Source of the DNA: Bacteroidales bacterium
Lineage (GTDB): Bacteria; Bacteroidota; Bacteroidia; Bacteroidales; WCHB1-69
Direction of reading: 5' to 3'
Assembly: GCA_017540505.1 (NCBI GenBank)
Contig: JAFYAW010000020.1
Coordinates: 1-43,916 of the forward strand
Length of the DNA: 43,916 bases
Part shown: piece by piece, positions 1,153 through 17,777 of the stretch
Layout of the letters: each line of letters starts with the position of its first letter
How positions within the stretch are numbered: the stretch's first letter is position 1
The notes under the pieces: generated by a model
The model's input: only the letters and a program-made list of their open reading frames with translations
Databases searched by the model: none
What the model was told of the DNA's origin: nothing
Made by a program: the position numbers and the translations under genes

Positions 1153-1929
1153 ATGAAAGTCGTTATTTTGGCCGGAGGTTACGGAACCCGTATCAGTGAG
1201 GAAAGCCACCTCAAACCCAAACCGATGATTGAAATAGGTGACAAGCCTATCTTGTGGCATATCATGAAAATATATTCCCATTATGGGTACAATGACTTCA
1301 TCATCTGCTGCGGATACAAGCATTATGTCATCAAAGAATGGTTTGCAGATTATTATCTCCACAACAGCGACATCATGTTTGACTTTACAGAAGACAACAA
1401 ACTTACCGTTTTAAACACCTCCGCTGTCGAGCCTTGGAAAGTGACCTTGGTGGATACCGGGTTGAACACCATGACGGGCGGGCGCGTGAAACGCATTCAG
1501 AAATATGTTGGCGACGAGCCTTTTATGCTCACATACGGTGACGGTGTGGCTGACATTAATATCAATGAACTCGTGAAATTCCATCAAAGCCATGGTAAAA
1601 TCGCCACCATCACGACCGTGAACGTGGGCCAACGTTTCGGCATCATTGAAATGGATGATTCCGACACCATTAAGGCCTTCCGCGAAAAATCCGATTCCGA
1701 CGGTAGTGTTATTAATGGCGGATTCATGGTCTTTCGCCCCGAAATATTCGATTACATTGATGATGACACCACCGTCTTTGAGAGAAAACCCCTTGAATCC
1801 ATGGCCAAGCTGGGGGAATTGAAAGCATATAAGCACAACGGCTTCTGGCATTGTATGGACACCCAGCGCGACAAAATGAATCTGGAAGAGTTGTGGGCAT
1901 CGGGGAAAGCACCGTGGAAGGTTTGGTAA
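1153..1929 (+). CDS. rfbF: Glucose-1-phosphate cytidylyltransferase
   Basis: Makes CDP-glucose from glucose-1-phosphate and CTP, the entry step to CDP-3,6-dideoxyhexoses. The 258-residue length is normal for RfbF. The N-terminus carries the nucleotidyltransferase signature LAGGYGTR (residues 6-13) followed by KPKPMIEIGDKPI, which binds the nucleotide phosphates. LTYGDGVAD near residue 128 supplies the metal-binding Asp, and the C-terminal WHCMDTQRDKMNLEELW is diagnostic for the cytidylyltransferase branch rather than RmlA or GalU. It is first in the operon behind a TATCTTTG box. A GTAGAGACG-type palindrome lies between it and rfbG. Confidence 0.95.
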   Translation: MKVVILAGGYGTRISEESHLKPKPMIEIGDKPILWHIMKIYSHYGYNDFIICCGYKHYVIKEWFADYYLHNSDIMFDFTEDNKLTVLNTSAVEPWKVTLVDTGLNTMTGGRVKRIQKYVGDEPFMLTYGDGVADININELVKFHQSHGKIATITTVNVGQRFGIIEMDDSDTIKAFREKSDSDGSVINGGFMVFRPEIFDYIDDDTTVFERKPLESMAKLGELKAYKHNGFWHCMDTQRDKMNLEELWASGKAPWKVW

Positions 1930-1938
1930 AATAATTTT

Positions 1939-1966
1939 GTAGAGACGGTACGCACACCGTCTCTTA
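1939..1966 (+). repeat. GTAGAGACG-family palindromic repeat, copy 1 (intergenic)
   Basis: AGAGACGGT (1941-1949) and ACCGTCTCT (1956-1964) form a perfect 9-bp stem with a 6-nt loop between rfbF and rfbG. There is no T-run, so it is unlikely to terminate. The arms match the repeat at 19803-19830 and the half copy at 43759-43777. Confidence 0.75.
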
Positions 1967-1980
1967 TAACAAAAAAGAAT

Positions 1981-3045
1981 ATGCAGACACTTAAAGGCAA
2001 GAAGGTTTTTCTGACCGGGCACACTGGTTTCAAGGGTGCATGGCTGACGTTTATGCTACATCAGATGGGCGCGAAAGTGACAGGATATTCTCTGGAACCT
2101 AACACCAAGCCCAGTCTTTTTGAGGTGCTTCACGGGGAAAGACTTTGCCACTCCATTATCGGAGACATTCGCGATACGGAACATTTGCACAAAAGCATGA
2201 CCGACTTCCAGCCGGACATCGTTTTCCATCTGGCGGCACAGCCTATCGTACGCACTTCGTACAAGATTCCGGCGGAGACTTTCGAGGTCAACGCCATCGG
2301 CACCGCCAACGTGTTGGACGGCATCCGCCTGTTGGAAAAACCCTGCGTGGGTGTGATGATCACCACCGACAAAGTCTATCAGAACAACGAAACGGGGCAA
2401 GCCTATAAGGAAGATGACCGTTTCGGCGGTTACGACCCGTACAGTGCCAGCAAGGCCTGCGCCGAACTGGTCATTGACTCGTATCGGAAGTCGTTTTTCA
2501 ATCCGGCCGATTACGAACAGCATCACAAAGCCATCGCCTCCGCCCGCGCCGGCAACGTCATCGGGGGAGGAGACTGGGCCGCCGACCGGCTGATACCCGA
2601 CATCGTGCGGGCTTTGTCCAAAGGCGAGGCCATACAGATTCGCAATCCCAAGGCCGTACGCCCGTGGCAGCATGTATTGGAACCCCTTTCCGGCTATATT
2701 CTGCTGGCGCAGAAACTGATGGAAGACCCTATCCAATATGCCGAAGGATTCAACTTCGGCCCGAACCCTGACGACACACTGACGGTGGAGGAGATGACGC
2801 AGATGGCCACGGAGATATGGGGCGGCGGCACATTTGTTTTCCCAAGACTCACCAACCAACCGCATGAGGCGGGACTACTCTCGTTGGACATCACCAAAGC
2901 CGGCAAAATGCTGGGCTGGAGGCCCCATTTCAATGCCCGGAAAGCATTGGAGATGACGCTGGAGTGGTATAAGGCTTTTTATAGCAATCCTTCAATCATT
3001 AATGAACTTACGGCAAAACAGATCAGACAATTTGACAAAATGTAA
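1981..3045 (+). CDS. rfbG: CDP-glucose 4,6-dehydratase
   Basis: Converts CDP-glucose to CDP-4-keto-6-deoxyglucose with a tightly bound NAD. It is an extended short-chain dehydrogenase: the dinucleotide motif TGHTGFKGAW is at residues 12-21, ITTDKVYQNN near 127-136 carries the active-site Thr and Asp region, and YSASK (154-158) supplies the catalytic Tyr and Lys. The 354 residues are normal for the family, and the RPWQHVLEPLSGY stretch is typical for RfbG. It starts 51 bp after rfbF in the same direction. Identification is secure from both sequence and neighbours. Confidence 0.95.
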   Translation: MQTLKGKKVFLTGHTGFKGAWLTFMLHQMGAKVTGYSLEPNTKPSLFEVLHGERLCHSIIGDIRDTEHLHKSMTDFQPDIVFHLAAQPIVRTSYKIPAETFEVNAIGTANVLDGIRLLEKPCVGVMITTDKVYQNNETGQAYKEDDRFGGYDPYSASKACAELVIDSYRKSFFNPADYEQHHKAIASARAGNVIGGGDWAADRLIPDIVRALSKGEAIQIRNPKAVRPWQHVLEPLSGYILLAQKLMEDPIQYAEGFNFGPNPDDTLTVEEMTQMATEIWGGGTFVFPRLTNQPHEAGLLSLDITKAGKMLGWRPHFNARKALEMTLEWYKAFYSNPSIINELTAKQIRQFDKM

Positions 3046-3110
3046 CAAGCCGAGAAAAAACACTGCCATAACGAAGAATATATTACATTTGAACAACACA
3101 ACAACATATT

Positions 3111-4424
3111 ATGTTAAACCATAGGGAATTACGCAAACAAATCACGGCATTGACCGCCGAATACTACAAAGCCCGCTTTGAAGAGAAAGAGTTCGTACCC
3201 GGCAAGACCAAAGTAAACTATGCCGGTCGTGTGTTTGACGAGGAGGAATTGCAGAATGCCGTAAACGCCTCTCTGGATTACTGGCTGACGGAAGGAAGAT
3301 TCTCCGAAGAGTTTTCCAGCAAGATCTCCGACTTTTTGGGAGTGGAGAATGTACTGCTCACCAATTCTGGCTCTTCCGCCAACCTGTTGGCGTTTTCTGC
3401 CCTAACGTCCGAAAAACTTGGTGACAAAAGGCTAAAACCTGGCGATGAGGTAATCTCTGTTGCCGCAGGGTTCCCCGCTACCGTAACGCCCATCATCCAA
3501 AACGGACTTGTACCGGTGTTCGTGGATCTCAGCATTCCGACCTATAATATTGATGTCGAAATGCTGAAAAAAGCCATCACCCCAAAAGTGAAGTGCATCT
3601 TCCTGGCACACACCCTTGGCAATCCGTTTGATATTGATGCCATCATGGCCCTTGCCAAGGAACACGATCTTTGGGTGGTGGAGGACAATTGCGACGCCTT
3701 CGGTTCCGAGTACAAGGGTAGGAAGACCGGCACATTTGGCCATCTGTCCACCATCTCGTTCTATCCCGCCCATCACATCACCACCGGCGAGGGCGGTGCC
3801 GTCTGCACCAACGACCCGCAGTTGGCGAGAATCGTGCGCGCGTTCCGCGACTGGGGTCGTGACTGCTACTGCGCAGGCGGCGACAACAACACCTGCGGCA
3901 AACGCTTTTCCCAGCAGTTTGGCACTTTGCCCTTTGGCTTTGACCACAAATATGTCTATTCGGAAATCGGCTACAACTTGAAAATGACCGACATACAAGC
4001 TGCTATCGGAGCCGCCCAGATGGACAAGCTGCCCGATTTCTGCGAAAGTCGCAAAGCGCATTTCCAAGAGTGGAAGCGTATCTTCGGAAAATATCCACAA
4101 TATTTCATCACCCCGGAACCCACCGAAGGAGCAGACCCCGCATGGTTCGCCTTTATCGTTACCTTGAAGGATAACTGCCCGTTCAAACGCGATGATTTGA
4201 CCAAGTATCTGAACGACAACCTTATTGAAACCCGCAATCTCTTTGCCGGCAATATGACCAAGCAGCCTGCCTTCATCGGCAAGAACTGGCGTATTGCCGA
4301 CCATCTGAACCAGACAGACTATATTATGAACAACACTTTCTTCTTAGGCACCTATCCCGGCCTGACAGATGAAATGTTCAAATATGCGGAAGAAAAATTG
4401 GATGAATTCGTGAAACAATATTAA
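3111..4424 (+). CDS. rfbH: CDP-4-keto-6-deoxyglucose 3-dehydrase (E1), PMP and iron-sulfur enzyme
   Basis: Removes the C3 hydroxyl of CDP-4-keto-6-deoxyglucose together with an E3-type reductase. It has the aminotransferase-like fold but uses PMP. The usual PLP lysine is replaced by histidine (HH at 221-222 in YPAHHITTGEGG), the known E1 exception. The unusual [2Fe-2S] ligand pattern of E1, C-X57-C-X1-C-X7-C, can be counted exactly here: Cys194, Cys252, Cys254 and Cys262. The protein is 437 residues, full length for RfbH/AscC. It therefore looks fully functional and should need a one-electron donor, probably the next gene, which starts 4 bp after its stop. Confidence 0.95.
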   Translation: MLNHRELRKQITALTAEYYKARFEEKEFVPGKTKVNYAGRVFDEEELQNAVNASLDYWLTEGRFSEEFSSKISDFLGVENVLLTNSGSSANLLAFSALTSEKLGDKRLKPGDEVISVAAGFPATVTPIIQNGLVPVFVDLSIPTYNIDVEMLKKAITPKVKCIFLAHTLGNPFDIDAIMALAKEHDLWVVEDNCDAFGSEYKGRKTGTFGHLSTISFYPAHHITTGEGGAVCTNDPQLARIVRAFRDWGRDCYCAGGDNNTCGKRFSQQFGTLPFGFDHKYVYSEIGYNLKMTDIQAAIGAAQMDKLPDFCESRKAHFQEWKRIFGKYPQYFITPEPTEGADPAWFAFIVTLKDNCPFKRDDLTKYLNDNLIETRNLFAGNMTKQPAFIGKNWRIADHLNQTDYIMNNTFFLGTYPGLTDEMFKYAEEKLDEFVKQY

Positions 4425-4428
4425 CAAT

Positions 4429-5112
4429 ATGCTGGCTAAGAAGTATTTATCAGAAGTCGTCTCCATAGCGAACCCGTTCAAGGGTATCTATACCGTTGAA
4501 TTCAAGTCGCTGGAACGACCATACAAATATGCCCCGGGGCAGTTCCTCCATATCGCCATTGACGAGGAGTACGACGGTATCGGACAATGGCCGGAATCGC
4601 GCTGCTTCTCCATGCAGAGCGAACCTGCCGAGGATGTCATCCGCATCACCTACGCCGTGAAAGGGAACTTCACCCAGGAGATGGAAAAGACTTTGAAAGT
4701 GGGTAGGGAAGTTTGGCTCAAACTTCCGTTTGGGGAACTTTTCACACAACCGCACAACAAAACCAATACCGTGTTCATCGCCGGCGGCACGGGCGTGACG
4801 CCCTTCCTTTCCCTCTTCACCCACGAATCTTTCAGGGACTATGCGGACCCGAGGATTTACTTGGGTTACAAGAACGAAGACTACTACATCTACCAGAAGG
4901 AGTTCGCCGCCATCAAGAACGACAATGCCCAGATTACCATCTTCTTTGAAAACAAAGATGGCGTAATCGACATTGCTGAAATCCATGAGCAGAACGGTAA
5001 CGACAGCAGCTATTTCATCTCCGGCCCTCCCGTGATGATCAAGATTTTCAAAGAGAAGCTCATCGAACTCGGTGTCCCGAAGGAGAATGTGCTCACCGAT
5101 GATTGGGAATAA
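4429..5112 (+). CDS. E3-type FAD/NAD(P)H reductase lacking the ferredoxin domain
   Basis: Ferredoxin-NAD(P)+ reductase-type flavoprotein, by position the electron supplier (E3, AscD/DdhD role) for RfbH. Visible are an FAD-binding RxxS motif (SRCFSMQS, about residues 58-65), the nucleotide-binding glycine motif AGGTGVTPF near residue 118, and the family C-terminus with SGPPVMI and a final DDW. Known AscD/DdhD proteins are about 330 residues because they start with a plant-type [2Fe-2S] domain of about 90 residues. This one is 227 residues and contains no cysteine cluster for such a centre. The rfbH stop lies 4 bp upstream, so no missing N-terminus can be added. Electrons must pass directly from FAD to RfbH or through a separate ferredoxin. 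Family call firm, role inferred. Confidence 0.8.
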   Translation: MLAKKYLSEVVSIANPFKGIYTVEFKSLERPYKYAPGQFLHIAIDEEYDGIGQWPESRCFSMQSEPAEDVIRITYAVKGNFTQEMEKTLKVGREVWLKLPFGELFTQPHNKTNTVFIAGGTGVTPFLSLFTHESFRDYADPRIYLGYKNEDYYIYQKEFAAIKNDNAQITIFFENKDGVIDIAEIHEQNGNDSSYFISGPPVMIKIFKEKLIELGVPKENVLTDDWE

Positions 5113-5143
5113 TTTGAAACGATAATACAACTTCAAAAATAAA

Positions 5144-5917
5144 ATGAACTTACAAGAACGTCAAATGCTGGACTCCTTACTTGAATTGAAAGAAGTATAT
5201 GGAGTTTATGGAATAAAAGCGGAATTTGAGGCCGAAGGGGCCCGTATGGATGAGCTTATCCGTCTTCGGGAACTGATATTACGTGCCGACTTGAAATTCA
5301 TTACCAAAATCGGCGGATGTGAAGCCGTGCACGATATGCAACAATGCAAGCTGCTTGGTGCTACAGGTGTCATGGCCCCCATGATTGAGACTCCTTTTGC
5401 GCTGAGCAAGTTCGCGGCCGCCGCCAAAAGAGTTTATGGTGACGAAGCCGACACGGTGGAATGGATTATCAATGCCGAGACCAAAACATGTTTTGAGAAT
5501 TATGAAGGTATTTTGAAAACGGGTAAAGGATTTCTGAACGCCGTAACAGTAGGCCGCAGCGACCTTTCCGCTTCAATGGGCATTGAAAGGAAGGACATTG
5601 AGTCCGAACCCGTGTATGATGTGACCCGAAAGCTGCTGCAGATGTCGCGCGAAGCGGGGCACACCACCAACTTCGGCGGTAACATCGGTATTGAAAGCAT
5701 TCCGTTTATTCTTAGGATGGGCGATGTGGCCGACCGTTTTGAAACCCGCAAGGTGGTCATCACAATGGACAAAGACGAAAAGAAAATACGCCAGGCAATC
5801 TATAAAGCCCTACATTTCGAACTCCTATGGCTATTGTACAAACAATCCTATTACAACCAGCTTTCGGCGGAGGATGAAGCCCGGATTGAGCGGATGCGCA
5901 ACCAACTTAACAAATAG
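5144..5917 (+). CDS. HpcH/HpaI (citrate lyase beta-like) aldolase family protein
   Basis: A 257-residue TIM-barrel protein of the class II, metal-dependent 2-oxo-acid aldolase superfamily. The expected metal ligands are visible as Glu112 (in INAETKTCFEN) and Asp140 in the signature GRSDLSASMG. KIGGCEA near 55-61 and APMIETPFA near 78-86 fit the barrel strands lining the active site. Family members make or cleave 2-keto-3-deoxy acids using pyruvate, or act on acyl-CoA-type substrates; the substrate cannot be read from sequence. It lies between the E3-like reductase and the kinase (4 bp before the kinase start), which strongly implies co-transcription. It has no place in the known CDP-dideoxyhexose or yersiniose pathways. 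Confidence 0.8.
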   Translation: MNLQERQMLDSLLELKEVYGVYGIKAEFEAEGARMDELIRLRELILRADLKFITKIGGCEAVHDMQQCKLLGATGVMAPMIETPFALSKFAAAAKRVYGDEADTVEWIINAETKTCFENYEGILKTGKGFLNAVTVGRSDLSASMGIERKDIESEPVYDVTRKLLQMSREAGHTTNFGGNIGIESIPFILRMGDVADRFETRKVVITMDKDEKKIRQAIYKALHFELLWLLYKQSYYNQLSAEDEARIERMRNQLNK

Positions 5918-5921
5918 AGAT

Positions 5922-6944
5922 ATGGGCAAGGTGATAACATTTGGGGAGTTGATGCTGAAATTGTCCCCACCGACATATAAAAGATTAATCCAAGCGCACC
6001 AGCTCAATGTGGAGTACAGCGGGGCAGAAGCCAATGTGGCCGTCTGTTTGGCCAACTTCGGGCTGGCTGTCTCTTTTGTAACAGCCGTACCTGATAATGT
6101 TTTAGGCGATGCCGCGATCAATGCCCTACGACATTATGGGGTTGATGTCTCTAAAATCATTCGGAAAGACGGCCGGATAGGCATCTATTTTTCGGAAAAA
6201 GGCGCAAGCCAACGCCCTTCGAAAGTGATTTACGACCGTAAAGATTCGGCTATCGCCTTGGCAACAGAAGCCGATTTTGATTGGGATTCTATTTTCCACG
6301 ATGCGACTTGGTTCCACTTCACGGGTATCACACCCGCCTTGAGCGACGATGCCGCAACCCTTTGCCTTGCAGCATGCAAAGCGGCAAAAGACAAAGGCTT
6401 GACCATCAGTTGCGACCTTAATTATCGGTCAAAACTATGGAACAAGGAAAAAGCCAACAACGTGATGACCGAACTATGCCAATATGTGGATATTTGCATA
6501 GCCAATGAAGCAGATGCCGCTGACGTATTCGGAATCAAAGCCGAAGAGAGTGATGTGGACAAAGGCATCCTTAATGAACAATCCTACATTTCAGTAGCCC
6601 AGCAGCTACAAAAGAAATTCGGTTTCAAACAAGTGGCCATCACGTTACGGGAATCCATCTCTGCAAGCGACAACAACTGGTCCGCAATCCTATTGGATGA
6701 CAATAGAATCTATACGAGTCACAAGTATCCCATCCATATCGTTGACCGCATTGGCGGCGGCGACTCTTTCGGTGCTGGATTGATTTACGCTATGATGATT
6801 GGATTTGACCCCCAGCACGCTTTGGAATTCGCCGTGGCAGCCAGTTGCCTGAAGCAAACCATCGAAGGGGATTTCAACCTTGTGACAGTAGGTGAGGTGG
6901 AATCTCTTGTTAAGGGGAATCACTCGGGAAGAATTTCAAGATAG
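5922..6944 (+). CDS. PfkB-family sugar kinase, 2-keto-3-deoxygluconate kinase-like
   Basis: Ribokinase/PfkB-fold kinase of 340 residues. The N-terminal MGKVITFGELMLKLSPP and the SGAEANVAVCLA substrate region are typical of KdgK-like enzymes, and the C-terminal anion-hole motif GGGDSFGAG (278-286) contains the catalytic Asp281. KdgK phosphorylates 2-keto-3-deoxygluconate, but no other uronate catabolism gene is present. Here the gene follows a 2-oxo-acid-type aldolase by 4 bp and precedes a thiamine-diphosphate enzyme, so a biosynthetic role on a related 2-keto-3-deoxy acid or aldehyde is possible. The start at 5922 is chosen because the conserved N-terminus begins there; upstream in-frame codons overlap the aldolase. 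True substrate unknown. Confidence 0.8.
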   Translation: MGKVITFGELMLKLSPPTYKRLIQAHQLNVEYSGAEANVAVCLANFGLAVSFVTAVPDNVLGDAAINALRHYGVDVSKIIRKDGRIGIYFSEKGASQRPSKVIYDRKDSAIALATEADFDWDSIFHDATWFHFTGITPALSDDAATLCLAACKAAKDKGLTISCDLNYRSKLWNKEKANNVMTELCQYVDICIANEADAADVFGIKAEESDVDKGILNEQSYISVAQQLQKKFGFKQVAITLRESISASDNNWSAILLDDNRIYTSHKYPIHIVDRIGGGDSFGAGLIYAMMIGFDPQHALEFAVAASCLKQTIEGDFNLVTVGEVESLVKGNHSGRISR

Positions 6945-6963
6945 ACCATATAAATGCCTTTTT

Positions 6964-8778
6964 ATGATTAAAGTTAGTGACTTTATTTTCCAATATTTGG
7001 TTGAAAAATACAACATCCATCATTGTTTTATGGTGACCGGTGGTGGTGCCATGCATCTGAACGATTCCATAGGTCACACCAAAGGTCTGACGTACATCTG
7101 CAACCATCATGAACAAGCCTCTGCCATTGCCGGAGAGGGTTATTATCGGGCTTGCGGCCATCTGGCCGTCACATGTGTCACGACCGGCCCTGGCGGCACC
7201 AATGCCGTTACTGGAGTTTTGGGACAATACCTTGATTCTATTCCCGGATTATATATTTCCGGACAAATTAAGACTTCCACCTACAAGCACACCTATCCGC
7301 ATTTGAATCTGCGTCAACTGGGCGATCAGGAGGCGGATATCGTTTCCATCGTTACACCCATTACAAAGTATGCCAAAACTATTTACAATCCTTTGGATGT
7401 GAAATACGAATTAGACAAGGCTATTGCGATTGCTCTTGACGGCAGACCGGGTCCTGTTTGGCTGGACATCCCCTTGGACGTGCAAGGTGCCACTGTTGAC
7501 GAAACCCAATTCCGGGAGTTTGACGCAACCGCTGAAATAATCGACCCTGTCAAACATGCGCTGGTGGATATTCAAATCAAGCAGCTTATAGAAAAAATAA
7601 AAGGGGCAAAAAGTCCTGTCATATACGTGGGTAATGGCGTTCGTCTGGCCAAACGTGAAAAGGAGTTCATCCGACTGGCAGAAACCCTGAATATTCCCGT
7701 GGTCACGGCCATCAGCGGCTCCGACCTCATTTGGCACGACCACCCGTTGTGTTTCGGAAAACCCGGCATTTGTGGCGATCGCATCGGCAATCTCATGGTA
7801 CAGAATTCCGACTTGCTTATAGTACTCGGCACAAGATTGAGCATCCGGCAAGTGGGCTATGCCTACGATCTTTTGGCCCCAAATGCATATAAAGTCATGG
7901 TAGATATTGATTTGGCTGAAATGCAAAAGCCCACATTGCGTATTGATATGCCCATCCATGCCAATATTTCAGAGTTTGTTGACAAAATGATCACCATACT
8001 TGGAGAAGAGACCGGATTACCTGATTTCAAATCCTGGATTGACTGGGGTAGAACGCTTGAGAGCAAACTCCCGACCCTTTTCGATGACAATCCGGACTGT
8101 GAGGGTTATGCCAACTCGTATAAGTTCGCCGATGAACTTTTCAAACAGCTGAAAGAGGACGATGTGGTAGTCACAGGCAATGGAACCGCTTACACCTGCA
8201 CCTATCAGGCCATGAAGGTCAGCAAAGGGGTACGGGTCTTTGCCAACCAAGGGTGTGCCGCCATGGGATATGGGCTGCCCGCCGCCATTGGTGCCTGTGT
8301 CAGCAACTACAAAGGAAAAACCATTTGCGTGACCGGTGACGGATCCATTCAGATGAACATCCAAGAACTTCAGACCATTGTCACAAACAAGCTGCCGCTG
8401 AAAATCTTTGTGCTGGAGAATGAGAGTTACTTGGCTATCAAAACCACCCAGAAGGCGTTTTTCCAAGGTCATTTTACCGGCAGCAATCCTTCTAGCGGAG
8501 TGGTATGTCCCGACCTGAAACGAATTGCGGAGGCATACGGGATTCCGTTTGTCCGAGTTTCGAGCAATGAGGCTTTGCCATCCACCATCTCGAAGGTGCT
8601 GGAATCCGAAGGTGCCTGCATCTGTGAAATCAAGATGCATCCCGAACAGACATTATTCCCAAAATCCGCATCCTTCATGGATAAGGAAACGGGAAAAATG
8701 ACATCCGCTCCACTTGACAAAATGGCCCCCTTCATGCCTGAAGAGCTACAAGCGCAATGTGTATTCAAAAGCAAATAA
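6964..8778 (+). CDS. Thiamine-diphosphate enzyme, acetolactate synthase-like (YerE-type candidate)
   Basis: A 604-residue member of the acetolactate synthase/pyruvate decarboxylase superfamily in the usual order: pyrimidine-binding domain with activating Glu50 (NHHEQASA) and TTGPGGTNA, central Rossmann-like domain, and pyrophosphate domain with GDGS (458-461) followed 25 residues later by Asn486. Next to rfbFGH, the closest known role is YerE of Yersinia, which transfers the acetyl group of pyruvate to C4 of CDP-4-keto-3,6-dideoxyglucose to make a branched sugar. Acetolactate synthase itself is less likely because there is no regulatory subunit or ilv gene nearby. The acyl donor may differ from pyruvate, given the aldolase and kinase upstream. 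Start at ATG 6964, 19 bp after the kinase stop. Confidence 0.8.
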   Translation: MIKVSDFIFQYLVEKYNIHHCFMVTGGGAMHLNDSIGHTKGLTYICNHHEQASAIAGEGYYRACGHLAVTCVTTGPGGTNAVTGVLGQYLDSIPGLYISGQIKTSTYKHTYPHLNLRQLGDQEADIVSIVTPITKYAKTIYNPLDVKYELDKAIAIALDGRPGPVWLDIPLDVQGATVDETQFREFDATAEIIDPVKHALVDIQIKQLIEKIKGAKSPVIYVGNGVRLAKREKEFIRLAETLNIPVVTAISGSDLIWHDHPLCFGKPGICGDRIGNLMVQNSDLLIVLGTRLSIRQVGYAYDLLAPNAYKVMVDIDLAEMQKPTLRIDMPIHANISEFVDKMITILGEETGLPDFKSWIDWGRTLESKLPTLFDDNPDCEGYANSYKFADELFKQLKEDDVVVTGNGTAYTCTYQAMKVSKGVRVFANQGCAAMGYGLPAAIGACVSNYKGKTICVTGDGSIQMNIQELQTIVTNKLPLKIFVLENESYLAIKTTQKAFFQGHFTGSNPSSGVVCPDLKRIAEAYGIPFVRVSSNEALPSTISKVLESEGACICEIKMHPEQTLFPKSASFMDKETGKMTSAPLDKMAPFMPEELQAQCVFKSK

Positions 8779-8792
8779 CACCTTTTTTCTCT

Positions 8793-9683
8793 ATGCAAAG
8801 CCTCATCGTCACAGGTGCCACCGGATGTGTGGGAAGCGCAGTCGTCAGACAAGCGATTGCACAAGGTATGGATGTGACATGTATCGTCCACAAGGATTCC
8901 AAAAGGGTGTCGAATCTTCCGCAAAGCAATCTTGTACATGTTGTGGAATGTGACCTCTCGGATTATTCTTCTATGGAATTAGCCGGCCAATATGATGCCT
9001 TCATACACCTGTCATGGGAAAAAACCTTCGGAGCCTCCCGTGACGATGCCGAAACCCAAACCCGCAACATCCAATATACCCTCGATGCCGTCAAATTAGC
9101 ACACCGTTGTGGCTGTAATGTCTTTGTAGGTGCTGGGTCGCAGGCGGAATATGGGGTGCAATCGCAAGACCTCACCCCTACCCTTCCCGTCAGCCCCGAA
9201 AGCGGCTATGGTATTGCTAAATATGCCGCAGGGAAGCTGTCGGCCATGCTGTGCAAAAGTCTGGGTATCCGTCACAACTGGGTGCGCATTCTCAGCGTCT
9301 ATGGCCCGAATGACGGAGAGAACACACTCATCAGTTACGCCATTCGGGAGCTGAAAGCCGGACGTTCTCCTGAACTCACGAAATGCGAGCAAATATGGGA
9401 TTACCTCTACGCAGACGATGCCGCAGACGCCATTTTGTTGGTGGCCGCCAAAGGCATTGATGGCAAAACATACCCTTTGGGGTCAGGACAAGGAAGAAAG
9501 TTGTCAGAATACATTGAGGAGATCCGCCAGATCATCAATCCTTCCGTTAAAGTCCAATATGGTGTTAAAGACTATTATCCGCATCAGCCGATGCACTTGG
9601 TGGCTGATATCAGCGAACTGACCAACGACACGGGCTGGCAACCACGAACGTCCTTTGAAGAGGGCATCCGCTCTTTTGTATAA
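8793..9683 (+). CDS. NAD(P)-dependent epimerase/dehydratase family, probable final sugar reductase
   Basis: Extended short-chain dehydrogenase of 296 residues. The Rossmann motif TGATGCVG is at residues 7-14 and the catalytic YGIAK (Tyr139, Lys143) follows a conserved GAGSQAEYG. YGPND and the WDYLYADDAADA stretch resemble nucleotide-sugar enzymes such as CDP-abequose synthase (RfbJ) and the YerF reductase. In a YerE-type pathway it would reduce the keto group of the new side chain; alternatively it could reduce C4 of CDP-4-keto-3,6-dideoxyglucose. The start at ATG 8793 is preferred because the motif begins directly after it; an in-frame ATG at 8757 lies inside the previous gene. Last gene of the first transcript. 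Confidence 0.75.
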   Translation: MQSLIVTGATGCVGSAVVRQAIAQGMDVTCIVHKDSKRVSNLPQSNLVHVVECDLSDYSSMELAGQYDAFIHLSWEKTFGASRDDAETQTRNIQYTLDAVKLAHRCGCNVFVGAGSQAEYGVQSQDLTPTLPVSPESGYGIAKYAAGKLSAMLCKSLGIRHNWVRILSVYGPNDGENTLISYAIRELKAGRSPELTKCEQIWDYLYADDAADAILLVAAKGIDGKTYPLGSGQGRKLSEYIEEIRQIINPSVKVQYGVKDYYPHQPMHLVADISELTNDTGWQPRTSFEEGIRSFV

Positions 9684-10975: not shown

Positions 10976-11947
10976 ATGAAAAAAATCAGCATACTGATTC
11001 CCTGTTATAACGAAGAGGAAAACGTTGTGCCAATGAGCAAAGCCGTGGTAAACGAACTGACCACGAAACTGCCACAATATGACTATGAACTCATTTTCAT
11101 TGACAACGACTCGCAGGACAATACCCGACCGTTGCTCCGCGAGATTTGCAAAAACAACCCGAAAATCAAAGCCATCTTCAATGCCAAGAACTTCGGGCAA
11201 TTTAACAGTCCATACTACGGTATGCTCCAAACCTCCGGCGACTGCACCATTACGATGTGCTGCGACTTTCAGGATCCGGTTGATTTGATTCCCAAGATGG
11301 TAGAAACATGGGAAAAAGGGGCAAAAATCGTCTCCTGCATCAAAACCAAAAGTAAAGAGAATCCCATAATGCGCTTTTTTCGCACCATCTACTACAAAAT
11401 CATCAAGAAAATGTCATCTGTGGACCAGATTGAGCATTTTACCGGTTTTGGCCTCTATGACAAAAGCTTTATCGAGGTGTTGCGCAATCTGAAAGACCCC
11501 ACCCCGTTCATTCGCGGCATTGTGGCTGAGCTGGGTTACAAACGGGTGGACATTGAATACACCCAGGCAAAGCGACGTGCCGGGAAAACACACAATAATT
11601 TCTTCACCCTGTTTGATGCGGCCATGCTCAGCTTCACCAGCTACACCAAGGTAGGCCTGCATCTCGTCACTTTTGCCGGATTGATATTGTCAGGCTTGTC
11701 GATTCTGGCCGCATTGGTTTACCTTGTACTGAAGCTGATTTATTGGGATTCCTTCTCCGCCGGCTTGGCTCCATTGATCATCGGCCTGTTCTTCATCAAT
11801 GCGGTGGAATTGCTCTTTATCGGCTTCGTGGGAGAGTACGTGATGAGCATCAACACGCGGGTGATGAACCGCCCGTTGGTCATTGAGGAGGAGCGGATTA
11901 ATTTTGATACAAAAGATAAAGAAAATCCCTGTTTCGAATCAGAATAA
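10976..11947 (+). CDS. Family 2 glycosyltransferase with two C-terminal membrane segments (GtrB/ArnC-like)
   Basis: Probable inner-membrane enzyme that loads a sugar from a nucleotide donor onto polyprenyl phosphate. It is 323 residues long. The GT-A domain begins with ISILIPCYNEEENV, has FIDNDSQDNT and the acidic pair in CCDFQDPVDL, and RGIVAELGYKR follows near residue 180. Two hydrophobic helices lie at about 229-255 and 262-292, the arrangement of GtrB and ArnC-type transferases. The donor could be the CDP-sugar made upstream, but this is inference. It starts 27 bp after the ATPase stop, so it is probably read from the ATPase promoter or through the whole locus. Confidence 0.85.
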   Translation: MKKISILIPCYNEEENVVPMSKAVVNELTTKLPQYDYELIFIDNDSQDNTRPLLREICKNNPKIKAIFNAKNFGQFNSPYYGMLQTSGDCTITMCCDFQDPVDLIPKMVETWEKGAKIVSCIKTKSKENPIMRFFRTIYYKIIKKMSSVDQIEHFTGFGLYDKSFIEVLRNLKDPTPFIRGIVAELGYKRVDIEYTQAKRRAGKTHNNFFTLFDAAMLSFTSYTKVGLHLVTFAGLILSGLSILAALVYLVLKLIYWDSFSAGLAPLIIGLFFINAVELLFIGFVGEYVMSINTRVMNRPLVIEEERINFDTKDKENPCFESE

Positions 11948-13503: not shown

Positions 13504-15687
13504 ATGAGTTCTAAAAAATCAAAAAAGCAGGTTAAAAGCAACAATCCAACAATATGTAAGAGTTCATCTGACGATCTCAACAAATCAGCTACTGAAATTG
13601 AACAGCCTGTTGAATCAAAATGGTGGAAATTTATCTTCGGAGGAGTTGCCGCCATTATTTTACTATTAATGATGCTTAACGCCAATTCCGTCGGTTCTGG
13701 TGGAGATGATTTATGGTATGGTACAAATGGAGAGTTCGTTTTGCGATATTATCTTGATGGAGATACATCCTGTTTGGATTACTCCAAAATTGATTATCAT
13801 AATATGACTCACAACTATGGATTAAAATATTTTGCAGGAGGTGGTTTTGATATTATTCCTGCTGCCATTTCAAGACTGTTTCATATTGATAACACATTAT
13901 TAGTCAAACGATTTTGCCTTGGATTTGTAGGCTTCTTGCTAATACTATTTACGGGTCTTATCTGCAAAGAAATACGTAATTGGAGGCTTGCCACGATTGC
14001 ACTGTTGATGATATCTCTAACGCCCACTATTTTTGGAATGTCCTTTTGCGGTGGTCAAGATATCCCAATGGCAATGGGTTTTGCAATGACCATTTATGGC
14101 TTAATTATTTTGACAAAAAAACTTCCTGCCATTAGTATAAAGGGATATATCTTCACTTTTCTTGGCATCATGTTTGCCATTAGCGTGCGCATTGGCGGAC
14201 TGATGACCTTGCTGTATTTCTTTGTCGCTGTAATGTTAGAATTAATTGCAAGGAAGGATTTGCGACAACTATTTGTCAACAAAAATATCCTTCAAATTGT
14301 AAAAATTCTTGGAATCTCATTAGTAATAGGAATTGTTGCTGCTTTATTGGGATTATGTGCCTATCCTAATATCTTTCACGAAGGAATTGTCACTCATATT
14401 TCCAAGGCTTTTGAAATGGTTAGTAAATTCTCAGTCCGCATCCCCTTCATCTACGACGGGAAAATGGCGGAATCCACCAACCCGCCGGAGCATTATCTAC
14501 TATTCTCTTTGTTAAGGACACTACCTTATTATATTCTCATCGGAGCGACTTTGTTTTTAGCATTCATTATCAGGGTCTTCAAAAAATATCGGAAAACTGT
14601 CATCCTTTTCTTGCTGTTCACAGCATTGTTCCCGCCCATCTACATCGTGGCATCCCATGCCAACATCTATAACGGATGGCGGCACCTCCTTTTCTTCTAT
14701 GCACCTTTCGCCGTGCTGGTCTCCATCGGATGGTACGAACTTATTGAATGGGTCAAACCCAAAAAACTGAAAGAGACCATTTACTATCCGATTGTGGCAG
14801 GTGTTATGCTCCTCATAGTCTCACCCACTCTGATATGGATGGTGAAAAACCACAACTACATTTATTGTTATTACAACAAGTCTGTTGGTAACCCCTATTT
14901 GAGATTTGAACTGGATTTCTATGAGACATCCGCGACAAAGGCTTATGACTGGCTGCGCGAAAACGAGCTGAACAAAACCGATTCCCTCGTGACTGTCTCC
15001 ACCAAAATCTTCACCCCGGTTTATTATGCGGAAATGCTGGGCGACACTGACCATGTGAAAGTCTTTACCACTTCTTACATGGGATTTGCCGAAACGGACT
15101 GCGATTACTCCATCATCAACTACCACGTGATCCAACCCAAGGCAATCAAAAGTTTCTTCCCACCCAAGGGAACTATCCATGTGGAAAAAGTGGATGGAAA
15201 TCCCATCTGTGCCGTGGTTAAGCGCAACAAGCTCGACTCCAAAGGTGTAAAACTCTGTAAAGAGGGGAAATACGCTGAGGCTGTCACTCTACTGGATTCG
15301 GCATATAAATACGACCCCGACAATTTCGGCATCTGGTTCTGGCTGGGATTAGCCCATTATCAAACGAAAAACTACGAAAAGTCCATCGAATTTTTCAACA
15401 AAGATATTAATTTCATTCCGACAGAACAAAAAATGGCATTAGCAGAGATGTATAACGGGGCTTCTCTTTATGAGCTAAAACGCTATGATGAAGCAATTAA
15501 AACATTACATAATGCTGAAAGACGGTGCACAGAGAAAAACAATCTGCCGTTTATTCAAGCCCATATCGGACTTGCCTATTTCGCCAAAAAAGAATACGCA
15601 AATGCTATCCCATACTTTAAGAGCGCCATGCCTACCTACCCATTCCTCGCAAACTACATCAACATTTGTATGATGAACTCCAAATAA
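13504..15687 (+). CDS. Multi-pass membrane protein with GT-C-like core and C-terminal TPRs (paralogue 1)
   Basis: A 727-residue protein with a short Lys/Ser-rich cytoplasmic N-terminus, about ten membrane helices between residues 45 and 445, and a soluble C-terminal part. The first extracytoplasmic loop has the acidic GSGGDDLWYG, the position expected for the catalytic Asp of GT-C enzymes that use polyprenyl-phosphate sugars. GGQDIP, the SVRIGG segment and NIYNGWRHLLFFYAPF are shared with the paralogue at 18581. From about residue 590 at least three TPR units follow (for example EGKYAEAVTLLDSAYKYDPD). Probably a periplasm-facing sugar transferase; acceptor unknown. Base composition is visibly AT-rich up to about 14430 and again after 15240, unlike the paralogue. 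Confidence 0.65.
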   Translation: MSSKKSKKQVKSNNPTICKSSSDDLNKSATEIEQPVESKWWKFIFGGVAAIILLLMMLNANSVGSGGDDLWYGTNGEFVLRYYLDGDTSCLDYSKIDYHNMTHNYGLKYFAGGGFDIIPAAISRLFHIDNTLLVKRFCLGFVGFLLILFTGLICKEIRNWRLATIALLMISLTPTIFGMSFCGGQDIPMAMGFAMTIYGLIILTKKLPAISIKGYIFTFLGIMFAISVRIGGLMTLLYFFVAVMLELIARKDLRQLFVNKNILQIVKILGISLVIGIVAALLGLCAYPNIFHEGIVTHISKAFEMVSKFSVRIPFIYDGKMAESTNPPEHYLLFSLLRTLPYYILIGATLFLAFIIRVFKKYRKTVILFLLFTALFPPIYIVASHANIYNGWRHLLFFYAPFAVLVSIGWYELIEWVKPKKLKETIYYPIVAGVMLLIVSPTLIWMVKNHNYIYCYYNKSVGNPYLRFELDFYETSATKAYDWLRENELNKTDSLVTVSTKIFTPVYYAEMLGDTDHVKVFTTSYMGFAETDCDYSIINYHVIQPKAIKSFFPPKGTIHVEKVDGNPICAVVKRNKLDSKGVKLCKEGKYAEAVTLLDSAYKYDPDNFGIWFWLGLAHYQTKNYEKSIEFFNKDINFIPTEQKMALAEMYNGASLYELKRYDEAIKTLHNAERRCTEKNNLPFIQAHIGLAYFAKKEYANAIPYFKSAMPTYPFLANYINICMMNSK

Positions 15688-17369: not shown

Positions 17370-17777
17370 ATGGACAAACTGATGCAACTGATAAAAACAC
17401 TTTACGCCAAATACCGCAACTTCATCCTCTATTGCGTTATTGGCGTGATTAACACGGGAGTGGATCTGGGCGTGTATTCACTGCTCTGCCACTGGGGTGT
17501 GCATTATCTGGTTGCCAACATCATCAGCTACCACTGCGGCATCGTGTGCAGTTTCCTCCTCAACCGGAAAGTCAACTTCAAAGTCAAAGACAAGGTTTTC
17601 CTCCGCTTCCTCTCTTTCTACGGCATCAGTTTGGTGGCCGTGGCCGCCAGCGAAGTCATGCTATACCTGTTTGTATCCGTCATGGGGCTCCACAGCATTG
17701 TGGCCAAGCTCATTTCCATGGTCATCATTGCCATCTGCCAGTTTCTATTTGTCAAACGCTTTACTTTCAGAAAATAA
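17370..17777 (+). CDS. GtrA-family membrane protein, probable polyprenyl-phosphate-sugar flippase
   Basis: Small inner-membrane protein of 135 residues with four predicted helices and the GtrA signature pattern: FILYCVIGVINTGVDLGVYSLL at the first helix, CSFLLNRKVNFK in the loop after the second, and a C-terminal FLFVKRFTFRK. GtrA proteins help move polyprenyl-phosphate-linked sugars to the periplasmic side. It is followed after 6 bp by a Dpm1-like GT2 that could make the lipid-linked sugar, and then by a GT-C-like protein that could use it. Confidence 0.85.
   Translation: MDKLMQLIKTLYAKYRNFILYCVIGVINTGVDLGVYSLLCHWGVHYLVANIISYHCGIVCSFLLNRKVNFKVKDKVFLRFLSFYGISLVAVAASEVMLYLFVSVMGLHSIVAKLISMVIIAICQFLFVKRFTFRK

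What the first reader, a model, noticed from the sequence alone, without database searches (positions are those of the whole stretch)
1153..9683. Possible new branched-sugar pathway: rfbFGH plus aldolase, KDG-like kinase and a YerE-like thiamine enzyme
Seen: eight same-strand genes with gaps of 4-65 bp, encoding RfbF, RfbG, RfbH, an E3-like reductase, an HpcH/HpaI aldolase, a PfkB kinase, a thiamine-diphosphate enzyme with intact Glu50 and GDGS motif, and an SDR reductase. Known: in Yersinia, YerE moves the acetyl group of pyruvate to C4 of CDP-4-keto-3,6-dideoxyglucose and YerF reduces it to yersiniose; no aldolase or kinase is needed. Inference: the aldolase could join pyruvate to an aldehyde, giving a 2-keto-3-deoxy acid, with the kinase adding or tuning a phosphate. 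The thiamine enzyme would then decarboxylate this longer acid and transfer its acyl chain to C4, giving a branched dideoxy sugar with a longer side chain than yersiniose.
Basis: partly seen in the sequence, partly recalled or inferred. Interest (0 to 1): 0.78.

Follow-up and report, generated by a model that had tools for sequence, protein, structure and literature searches.

The report
Long-branched sugar pathway gene cluster
A row of eight genes in a rumen-type bacterium looks like the assembly line for an unusual surface sugar carrying a long extra carbon arm, and its core gene pair, with swappable helper genes, turns up in many bacteria and some methane-producing archaea.

Summary
The eight genes are real, intact and in the stated order. 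The cluster most likely makes a 3,6-dideoxyhexose with a long C4 branch: a class II aldolase builds a 2-keto-3-deoxy acid, a KDG-kinase-like PfkB phosphorylates it, and a YerE-like thiamine enzyme transfers its acyl chain to CDP-4-keto-3,6-dideoxyglucose. In the 80 nearest aldolase loci the thiamine enzyme lies within 7 kb in 69, RfbF/G/H in 47; all 7 loci with aldolase, kinase and thiamine enzyme, five of them archaeal, also have Rfb genes. Linked kinases form one clade apart from 29 unlinked ones. The genome shows no KDPG aldolase, UxuA or KARI. The thiamine enzyme has Asp where PpYerE and AHAS have Phe. Long 2-keto acid donors are not a new idea: PMC12247030 reports them for ErwE and MMAR_2332. 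New is the architecture: the slot beside the aldolase holds a kinase, a phosphatase, or an SDR plus dehydroquinate-synthase-like cyclase, never two of these in 80 loci (p about 0.03 after thinning). Substrates, product and phosphate fate are inferred; no structure model could be run.

The parts
1153..1929 (+). RfbF, glucose-1-phosphate cytidylyltransferase
   Evidence: TIGR02623 401.7 bits, cut-off 300.25
1981..3045 (+). RfbG, CDP-glucose 4,6-dehydratase
   Evidence: TIGR02622 494.3 bits, cut-off 278.45
3111..4424 (+). RfbH, CDP-4-keto-6-deoxyglucose 3-dehydrase (PLP)
   Evidence: NF011936 676.8 bits, cut-off 423
4429..5112 (+). E3-like FAD/NAD reductase, likely partner of RfbH (227 aa, no ferredoxin domain hit)
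   Evidence: PF00175, PF08022; a homologue of this gene was found in only 2 of the 80 loci, L020 and L091
5144..5917 (+). Divergent HpcH/HpaI class II pyruvate aldolase; proposed maker of a 2-keto-3-deoxy acid
   Evidence: PF03328 39.5 bits; profile match to HpcH/HpaI structures, best YfaU 2vws E 5.5e-5; E112 and D140 invariant in 67 rows
5922..6944 (+). PfkB kinase of the KDG-kinase type; proposed kinase of the aldol product
   Evidence: 2afb 386 bits; 52.7% identity to it; own clade with other cluster-linked kinases; only match of its kind in the genome at E 1e-50
6964..8778 (+). YerE-like ThDP enzyme; proposed transfer of the long acyl chain to C4 of CDP-4-keto-3,6-dideoxyglucose
   Evidence: PF02775/PF00205/PF02776; best structure 8rph JanthE 424 bits; Glu50, GDG; D121
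8757..9683 (+). Extended SDR; proposed YerF-like reductase of the branch ketone
   Evidence: PF01370 133.4 bits; a homologue lies near the ThDP enzyme in 21 of 69 loci, including all five archaeal ones
10976..11947 (+). GtrB-like GT2 glycosyltransferase with two predicted C-terminal TM segments; frequent neighbour
   Evidence: PF00535, TM count, homologues near 48 of the 80 loci
13504..15687 (+). Membrane protein, 9 predicted TM segments plus TPR; possible GT-C transferase
   Evidence: GT-C assignment is inference
17370..17777 (+). GtrA-like flippase
   Evidence: PF04138 90.7 bits

Best explanation
This is a dedicated biosynthetic cluster for a nucleotide-activated, long-branched 3,6-dideoxyhexose that is put on a surface glycan. 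RfbF, RfbG, RfbH and the E3-like reductase make CDP-4-keto-3,6-dideoxyglucose (by family). The class II aldolase adds pyruvate to an aldehyde, probably glyceraldehyde, giving a KDG-like 2-keto-3-deoxy acid; the PfkB kinase phosphorylates it, which would pull the reversible aldol reaction forward. The ThDP enzyme decarboxylates this acid and adds the acyl chain to the C4 ketone, and the SDR reduces the new ketone. If the acid is C6 the product is a C11 sugar with a 2'-deoxy branch, perhaps with a terminal phosphate. A GtrB-like GT2 and a GtrA-like flippase would then deliver it. Shown: gene families, conserved linkage, a separate kinase clade, altered pocket residues. Inferred: substrates, product, order of kinase and ThDP steps, fate of the phosphate, delivery.
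For: Linkage: of the 80 nearest aldolase loci, ThDP enzyme within 7 kb in 69, RfbF/G/H in 47; 47 of the 69 lie within 300 bp. ThDP-first sample: 12 of 395 Bacteroidota genomes (own included) have a JanthE-like enzyme (E<=1e-110), 8 of 12 with the aldolase within 4 kb. Same order RfbFGH-Ald-PfkB-TPP-SDR in Methanobacteriaceae L056, L057, L058 and L060; in L059 the Rfb genes lie on the other strand. Kinase: 12 linked kinases form one clade against 29 unlinked (96/93); 10 of 10 tested unlinked ones adjoin a KDPG aldolase (chosen as told under rejected items); residues recalled as the KDG site kept. Own genome: no PF01081, PF03786 or PF01450 match. ThDP active site: position 121, one of five picked by docking in JanthE and where V121A lowers and V121M doubles activity (PMC12188165 section 2.2), is F in PpYerE and AHAS, V in JanthE, D in the window and in 54 of 68 aldolase-locus enzymes including all 8 with PfkB. 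Second user: in L023, L025 and L026 the aldolase-kinase pair adjoins a class I aminotransferase and an ATP-grasp ligase, an independent hint that its output is a 2-keto acid. Literature: ErwE and MMAR_2332 use hydroxylated 2-keto acids (PMC12247030 passages); caryophyllose's branch is 1,3,4,5-tetrahydroxyhexyl, i.e. 2'-deoxy (PMC5706390 passage).
Against: No enzyme assay or product structure exists. The aldolase's profile match to known structures is weak and covers mainly its middle to C-terminal part; the N-terminal catalytic residues of HpaI could not be mapped, and no structure model could be run. A kinase here and a phosphatase in the same slot elsewhere give opposite end states, which the model does not fully explain. 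Fourteen of 68 aldolase-locus ThDP enzymes lack D121, and L159, with no aldolase on its short contig, has it. The window enzyme differs from JanthE at 3 of the 5 docked positions (D121, C270, R295); that position 121 faces the donor is recalled from acetolactate synthases, not shown by the paper, which docked acceptor and product. Four of 12 in the ThDP-first sample show no aldolase: L153 and L160 in 19-20 kb stretches, L158 with 2.3 kb of contig left, L159 on a 5.3-kb contig. In Novosphingobium (L009) the aldolase follows RfbF and RfbG but no ThDP gene was hit in 28.8 kb. A 35% aldolase homologue sits in a catabolic-looking Ilyobacter locus. The window-type SDR is near only 21 of 69 ThDP loci.
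Confidence: 0.66

Rival explanations
1. A yersiniose-type pathway: the ThDP enzyme transfers only acetyl from pyruvate, and aldolase and kinase merely supply pyruvate locally or are passengers.
For: YerE prefers pyruvate (PMC12247030); RfbFGH, ThDP enzyme and SDR are the yersiniose set.
Against: D121 replaces the Phe seen in PpYerE and AHAS; nearest solved relative is the donor-promiscuous JanthE; the aldolase-ThDP pairing is too widespread for passengers; no UxuA in the genome to make KDG.
Confidence: 0.13
2. The aldolase and kinase form a uronate/KDG catabolic route that happens to lie here.
For: The kinase is 52.7% identical to T. maritima KDG kinase, a catabolic enzyme by its name.
Against: No KDPG aldolase and no UxuA found in the genome, 91% complete (other KDG-forming enzymes were not searched for); linked kinases are a separate clade and partner a different aldolase from the unlinked ones tested.
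Confidence: 0.05
3. The ThDP enzyme is the genome's acetolactate synthase for valine/isoleucine.
For: Best NCBIfam models are acetolactate synthases; the other three PF02775 hits in the genome are in ORFs of 354 aa or less.
Against: The 25 models shown of 54 all fall below their cut-offs; no KARI (PF01450) in the genome; embedded in a sugar operon.
Confidence: 0.03
4. The aldolase-kinase pair makes a 2-keto acid, but it is used unphosphorylated or on a sugar other than CDP-4-keto-3,6-dideoxyglucose, so the product is outside the caryophyllose/erwiniose type.
For: Of the 69 ThDP-containing loci, 24 show no RfbF/G/H within 7 kb, some on short contigs; the aldolase also serves aminotransferase-ligase clusters.
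Against: In the window and L020 RfbFGH and E3 are directly upstream.
Confidence: 0.13

Closest known systems
Erwiniose pathway, ErwE of Pectobacterium atrosepticum
   Same: ThDP enzyme coupling a hydroxylated 2-keto acid to CDP-4-keto-3,6-dideoxyglucose, shown in vitro with an acceptor analogue, per PMC12247030 (passages)
   Different: Whether its cluster holds this aldolase or a kinase could not be checked (primary papers not held); erwiniose's donor would be a C5 acid (recalled structure)
Caryophyllose pathway, MMAR_2332 of Mycobacterium marinum
   Same: Long 2'-deoxy polyhydroxy branch at C4 of a 3,6-dideoxyhexose (PMC5706390)
   Different: Gene content of that cluster not tested here; no sequence compared
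Yersiniose A pathway, YerE/YerF
   Same: RfbFGH-type precursor, ThDP transfer to C4, SDR reduction
JanthE (PDB 8RPH)
   Same: Best solved relative of the ThDP enzyme, 424 bits; shares Y297, K567 and the C-terminal extension
   Different: Differs at V121, Y268 and P293 and has a CDG motif; a JanthE-like gene with V121 and CD in place of GD (L160) showed no aldolase nearby
KDG kinase / KDPG aldolase pair (Entner-Doudoroff branch)
   Same: Kinase family and active-site residues
   Different: Partner aldolase is HpcH/HpaI-type, not PF01081; separate kinase clade

Membership tests
YerE-like ThDP enzymes (C4 branching of keto-deoxy sugars) | Three-domain ThDP fold with catalytic Glu and GDG motif | tested here: met
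   E50 and GDGS intact
YerE-like ThDP enzymes (C4 branching of keto-deoxy sugars) | Genes for CDP-4-keto-3,6-dideoxyglucose alongside | tested here: met
   RfbF, RfbG, RfbH above curated cut-offs, same strand, upstream
YerE-like ThDP enzymes (C4 branching of keto-deoxy sugars) | Closest sequence among solved structures is a YerE-like enzyme | tested here: met
   8rph = JanthE, 424 bits, next best 255 (identity of 8rph from PMC12188165)
YerE-like ThDP enzymes (C4 branching of keto-deoxy sugars) | Carboligation to a ketone acceptor | not testable with these tools
   needs enzyme assay
Pyruvate-type YerE (yersiniose) | Bulky Phe at JanthE position 121, as in PpYerE and AHAS | tested here: not met
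   Asp121 in the window. One YerE and one AHAS reference only; role of this Phe in the donor pocket is recalled
Long-donor ThDP enzymes (ErwE, MMAR_2332) | Uses hydroxylated 2-keto acids longer than pyruvate | not testable with these tools
   indirect support only: linked aldolase, D121
HpcH/HpaI class II pyruvate aldolases | Pfam PF03328 above gathering score | tested here: met
   39.5 bits, cut-off 25, over residues 70-173
HpcH/HpaI class II pyruvate aldolases | Metal-binding Glu and Asp | tested here: met
   E112 and D140 invariant in 67 rows and aligned with Glu/Asp of YfaU; role of those residues recalled
HpcH/HpaI class II pyruvate aldolases | N-terminal His/Arg catalytic residues and TIM-barrel fold | tested here: inconclusive
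   N-terminal part not aligned with confidence to known structures; structure prediction queue full in 14 attempts
KDG kinase (PfkB) | NCBIfam equivalog cut-off (NF041332, NF040938) | tested here: not met
   263 bits, cut-off 440; 134 bits, cut-off 400
KDG kinase (PfkB) | Substrate-site residues of KDG kinases | tested here: met
   G34, Y89, Y104, R106, R169, D281 invariant in the 12 linked and in at least 28 of 29 unlinked kinases; assignment as KDG site recalled
Acetolactate synthase | NCBIfam equivalog cut-offs; ilv pathway present | tested here: not met
   338 bits, cut-off 538 for the best model; no KARI in the genome
Uronate/KDG catabolism | KDPG aldolase or mannonate dehydratase in the genome | tested here: not met
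   0 matches to PF01081 and PF03786; genome 91% complete

The most novel reading that the evidence does not exclude
The window is one member of a widespread combinatorial system for higher-carbon sugars in bacteria and archaea. Its core is a divergent pyruvate aldolase plus a YerE-like enzyme, mostly of a D121 type. A single swappable slot decides the fate of the branch phosphate: a kinase adds it, a HAD phosphatase removes it, or an SDR plus dehydroquinate-synthase-like cyclase uses it to close the branch into a carbocycle. The cyclase version would be a route to carbocyclic branched sugars, a class whose known member bradyrhizose had no identified genes in 2016 (PMC4743980).
Probability: 0.43. 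Interest if true: 0.78.

Novelty: new variant of a known kind. Interest (0 to 1): 0.62.

Why it matters
Long-branched and carbocyclic surface sugars (caryophyllose, erwiniose, bradyrhizose) are structurally known, while the source of the branch is documented for few enzymes. This cluster pairs the branching enzyme with a likely maker of its donor and with a kinase, so substrate, order and product become directly testable in vitro. The swap of kinase, phosphatase and cyclase in one slot gives a simple genomic rule for predicting branch type, and its presence in Methanobacteriaceae suggests some archaea make such sugars too. ThDP enzymes with new donor ranges are also sought as biocatalysts for tertiary alcohols (PMC12247030).

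Tried and rejected
Considered and rejected: uronate catabolism; acetolactate synthase; passenger genes. A scan of viral contigs with the window aldolase gave no relative. A plasmid search with the ThDP enzyme at E 1e-60 gave 31 records at 32.5% identity or less; those with a named gene are acetolactate synthases, others carry no annotation. The E. coli and phage collections were not searched.

Weak points found: exclusivity of kinase, phosphatase and cyclase is 0 of 80 against a shuffled mean of 11.4, but after thinning to 29 loci at 65% identity it is 0 against 2.3, with 674 of 20000 shuffles as low (p about 0.03). The seeds for phosphatase, SDR and cyclase came from these same loci. The 7 further aldolase loci each hold exactly one of the three (2 phosphatase, 5 cyclase). 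Of the 80 loci, 5 have neither ThDP enzyme nor aminotransferase/ligase within 7 kb (L022, L047, L064, L086, L098); L086 has a ThDP gene about 7 kb off. The ThDP tree is a quick tree with long reference branches and a warning about them. Rows dropped: of 70 ThDP rows listed (L031, L071, L088) were left out; of 83 aldolase rows, 66 plus the window went into A2. L020, L021 and L023 are the same contigs as G018, G035 and G027 by length. The kinase of L022 was grouped as aminotransferase-type because of its neighbour only. The 10 kinase neighbours were chosen for having a ~222-aa ORF downstream, out of 29 loci.

Errors of mine: the kinase query was in the wrong frame; its kinase rows are void and were replaced from then on.

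Full report
Observation. The eight genes are where the finding puts them, intact and on one strand. RfbF, RfbG and RfbH pass curated NCBIfam cut-offs. The aldolase is a divergent HpcH/HpaI protein (PF03328, 39.5 bits). The PfkB protein matches T. maritima KDG kinase 2afb at 386 bits. The ThDP enzyme matches JanthE (8rph) at 424 bits, with the next structure at 255 bits; that 8rph is JanthE comes from PMC12188165 (passages). Its Glu50 and GDGS motif are intact. The window lies in a 2.5-Mb, 51-contig, 91% complete genome; its nearest named aldolase relatives are rumen or reticulum Bacteroidales MAGs.

Comparative linkage. In a set of 100 genomes including the window's own, the aldolase occurs in 7 and a JanthE-like ThDP enzyme (47% identity or more) in 6, with a gap from 572 to 231 bits below them. 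In 5 of those 6 the two are adjacent or one gene apart; in the sixth (G056, L104) the contig ends at the ThDP gene. The other 2 aldolase genomes (G027, G052) carry it beside a kinase, a class I aminotransferase and an ATP-grasp ligase. Within 7 kb of the aldolase, 69 of 80 have the ThDP enzyme and 47 of 80 at least one of RfbF/G/H; 47 of the 69 ThDP genes lie within 300 bp. Starting from the ThDP enzyme instead, 12 of 395 Bacteroidota genomes (own included) have it at E 1e-110, and 8 of the 12 have the aldolase within 4 kb.

The slot beside the aldolase. In the 80 loci a PfkB kinase occurs in 11, a HAD phosphatase in 22 and a dehydroquinate-synthase-like cyclase in 25, the last always with a classical SDR (25 of 25); no locus has two of the three. 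Shuffling gives a mean of 11.4 loci with two or more and never zero in 20000; after thinning to 29 loci the expectation is 2.3 and zero occurs in 674 of 20000. The labels change often on the aldolase tree (22 changes for four labels), so the swap is repeated. All 7 further aldolase loci hold exactly one module. Families were assigned with Pfam on representatives. Nineteen ThDP loci have none of the three, one of which (L037) has a transaldolase-family gene.

The kinase. The 11 linked kinases of the 80 loci plus the window's form one clade (96/93) against 29 unlinked Bacteroidales homologues, none of which has this aldolase, ThDP enzyme or RfbH in the roughly 1.5 kb held on each side. Ten unlinked ones tested adjoin a PF01081 KDPG aldolase, 10 of 10 (chosen as told under rejected items). 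Residues recalled as the KDG site are kept in both groups; Lys93 marks the linked group (12 of 12; Thr in 28 of 29 unlinked). The window genome has no PF01081 and no PF03786 match and no second kinase of this type at E 1e-50. A biosynthetic role is therefore much more likely than catabolism.

The ThDP active site. PMC12188165 (passages, and section 2.2 read) picked V121, Y268, P293, Y297 and K567 of JanthE by docking acceptor and product; V121A lowers and V121M doubles activity, Y268 and P293 are linked to FAD, and Y297 may touch the donor. Mapped onto the alignment, all five JanthE letters agree. The window has D, C, R, Y and K there. Position 121 is Phe in PpYerE and AHAS, Val in JanthE and Asp in the window; Asp in 54 of 68 aldolase-locus enzymes and in all 8 with a kinase. 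The 14 exceptions are I 8, V 4, Q 2. In the ThDP-first sample, enzymes with RfbFGH but no aldolase or cyclase seen have Tyr (L158, contig ends 2.3 kb on) or Val (L160), while L153 (cyclase, no aldolase) and L159 (short contig) have Asp. An acidic residue where acetyl-transferring enzymes have Phe suits a polyhydroxylated donor; this is inference, and that the position faces the donor is recalled.

Mechanism. By family, RfbFGH and the reductase give CDP-4-keto-3,6-dideoxyglucose. The aldolase makes a 2-keto-3-deoxy acid, the kinase phosphorylates it, the ThDP enzyme transfers its acyl chain to C4, and the SDR reduces the ketone. The predicted branch is 2'-deoxy, as in caryophyllose, described as 3,6-dideoxy-4-C-(D-altro-1,3,4,5-tetrahydroxyhexyl)-D-xylo-hexopyranose (PMC5706390 passage). 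Aldol addition of pyruvate is reversible, so phosphorylation here and dephosphorylation elsewhere could both serve to drive it. In the cyclase loci a retained phosphate could be the leaving group for ring closure, by analogy with dehydroquinate synthase. These last points are inference. Downstream, a GtrB-like GT2, a GtrA-like protein and two large membrane proteins with TPR domains suggest polyprenyl-linked delivery; a GtrA-type gene also lies near other loci (19 of 73; two representatives confirmed).

Relation to the literature. The review PMC12247030 (passages, outline and part 1 of 2 of the reference list; [quoted passage not shown] The primary papers are not held, so prior description of aldolase-linked clusters cannot be excluded. 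Searches listed no other paper whose title or abstract start describes such clusters; some searches listed only part of their hits (15 of 18, 12 of 8,818, 10 of 192, 20 of 33). PMC4743980 states that bradyrhizose genes were unknown in 2016 and proposes an 11-gene cluster (passages).

Verdict. It is a new variant of the YerE/ErwE kind. The swappable slot and its reach into archaea are the most interesting part.

Noticed in passing
L044, L046, L050, L054, L063, L067, L069, L071, L073-L075, L077, L079, L082, L084, L085, L088-L091, L095-L099 (25 of 80 loci): A dehydroquinate-synthase-like cyclase with a classical SDR lies near the aldolase, 24 of 25 times with the ThDP enzyme: a candidate route to carbocyclic branched sugars.
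   Followed up: partly
L014 (same contig as L023), L015, L024, L025, L026, L036, L066: The same aldolase beside a kinase or a phosphatase with an aminotransferase and/or an ATP-grasp ligase and no ThDP enzyme: possibly a keto acid turned into an amino acid and amide-linked to an amino sugar.
   Followed up: partly
L056-L060: Methanobacteriaceae (Methanosphaera, Methanobrevibacter and unnamed) carry RfbFGH (L059: RfbG and RfbH within 7 kb), aldolase, kinase, ThDP enzyme and SDR, four of five in the window's order, no E3 detected; implies dideoxy branched sugars in archaea.
   Followed up: partly
L037:10821-11516, L077: Transaldolase/fructose-6-phosphate-aldolase family gene next to (L037) or near (L077) the aldolase; may supply the aldehyde.
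   Followed up: no
L153: RfbFGH, E3, ThDP enzyme (D121), SDR and cyclase but no aldolase in 20 kb; may draw its donor from central metabolism.
   Followed up: no
window:4429-5112: E3-like reductase is 227 aa with no ferredoxin domain hit, unlike classical E3 (recalled), so its electron path to RfbH may differ.
   Followed up: no
window:9791-10948 and L011:7772-8878: An AAA ATPase gene sits after the SDR here, but a distant one (29%) sits between RfbG and RfbH in the close relative L011.
   Followed up: no
window:24942-32894 (-): 2650-aa protein with many fibronectin III domains, a purple acid phosphatase N-domain and a Por_Secre_tail (type 9 secretion) signal.
   Followed up: no
L015:3868-4632: The aldolase of G052 has one in-frame TAA; sequencing error or a broken gene.
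   Followed up: no
L010:13989-14762 (Ilyobacter plasmid): A 35% aldolase homologue beside an aconitase, a 2-hydroxyacid dehydrogenase and a carboxylate transporter: the family has a catabolic-looking branch.
   Followed up: no
L009:11992-14804 (Novosphingobium humi plasmid): RfbF and RfbG homologues directly before the aldolase with no ThDP gene hit in the 28.8 kb held.
   Followed up: no
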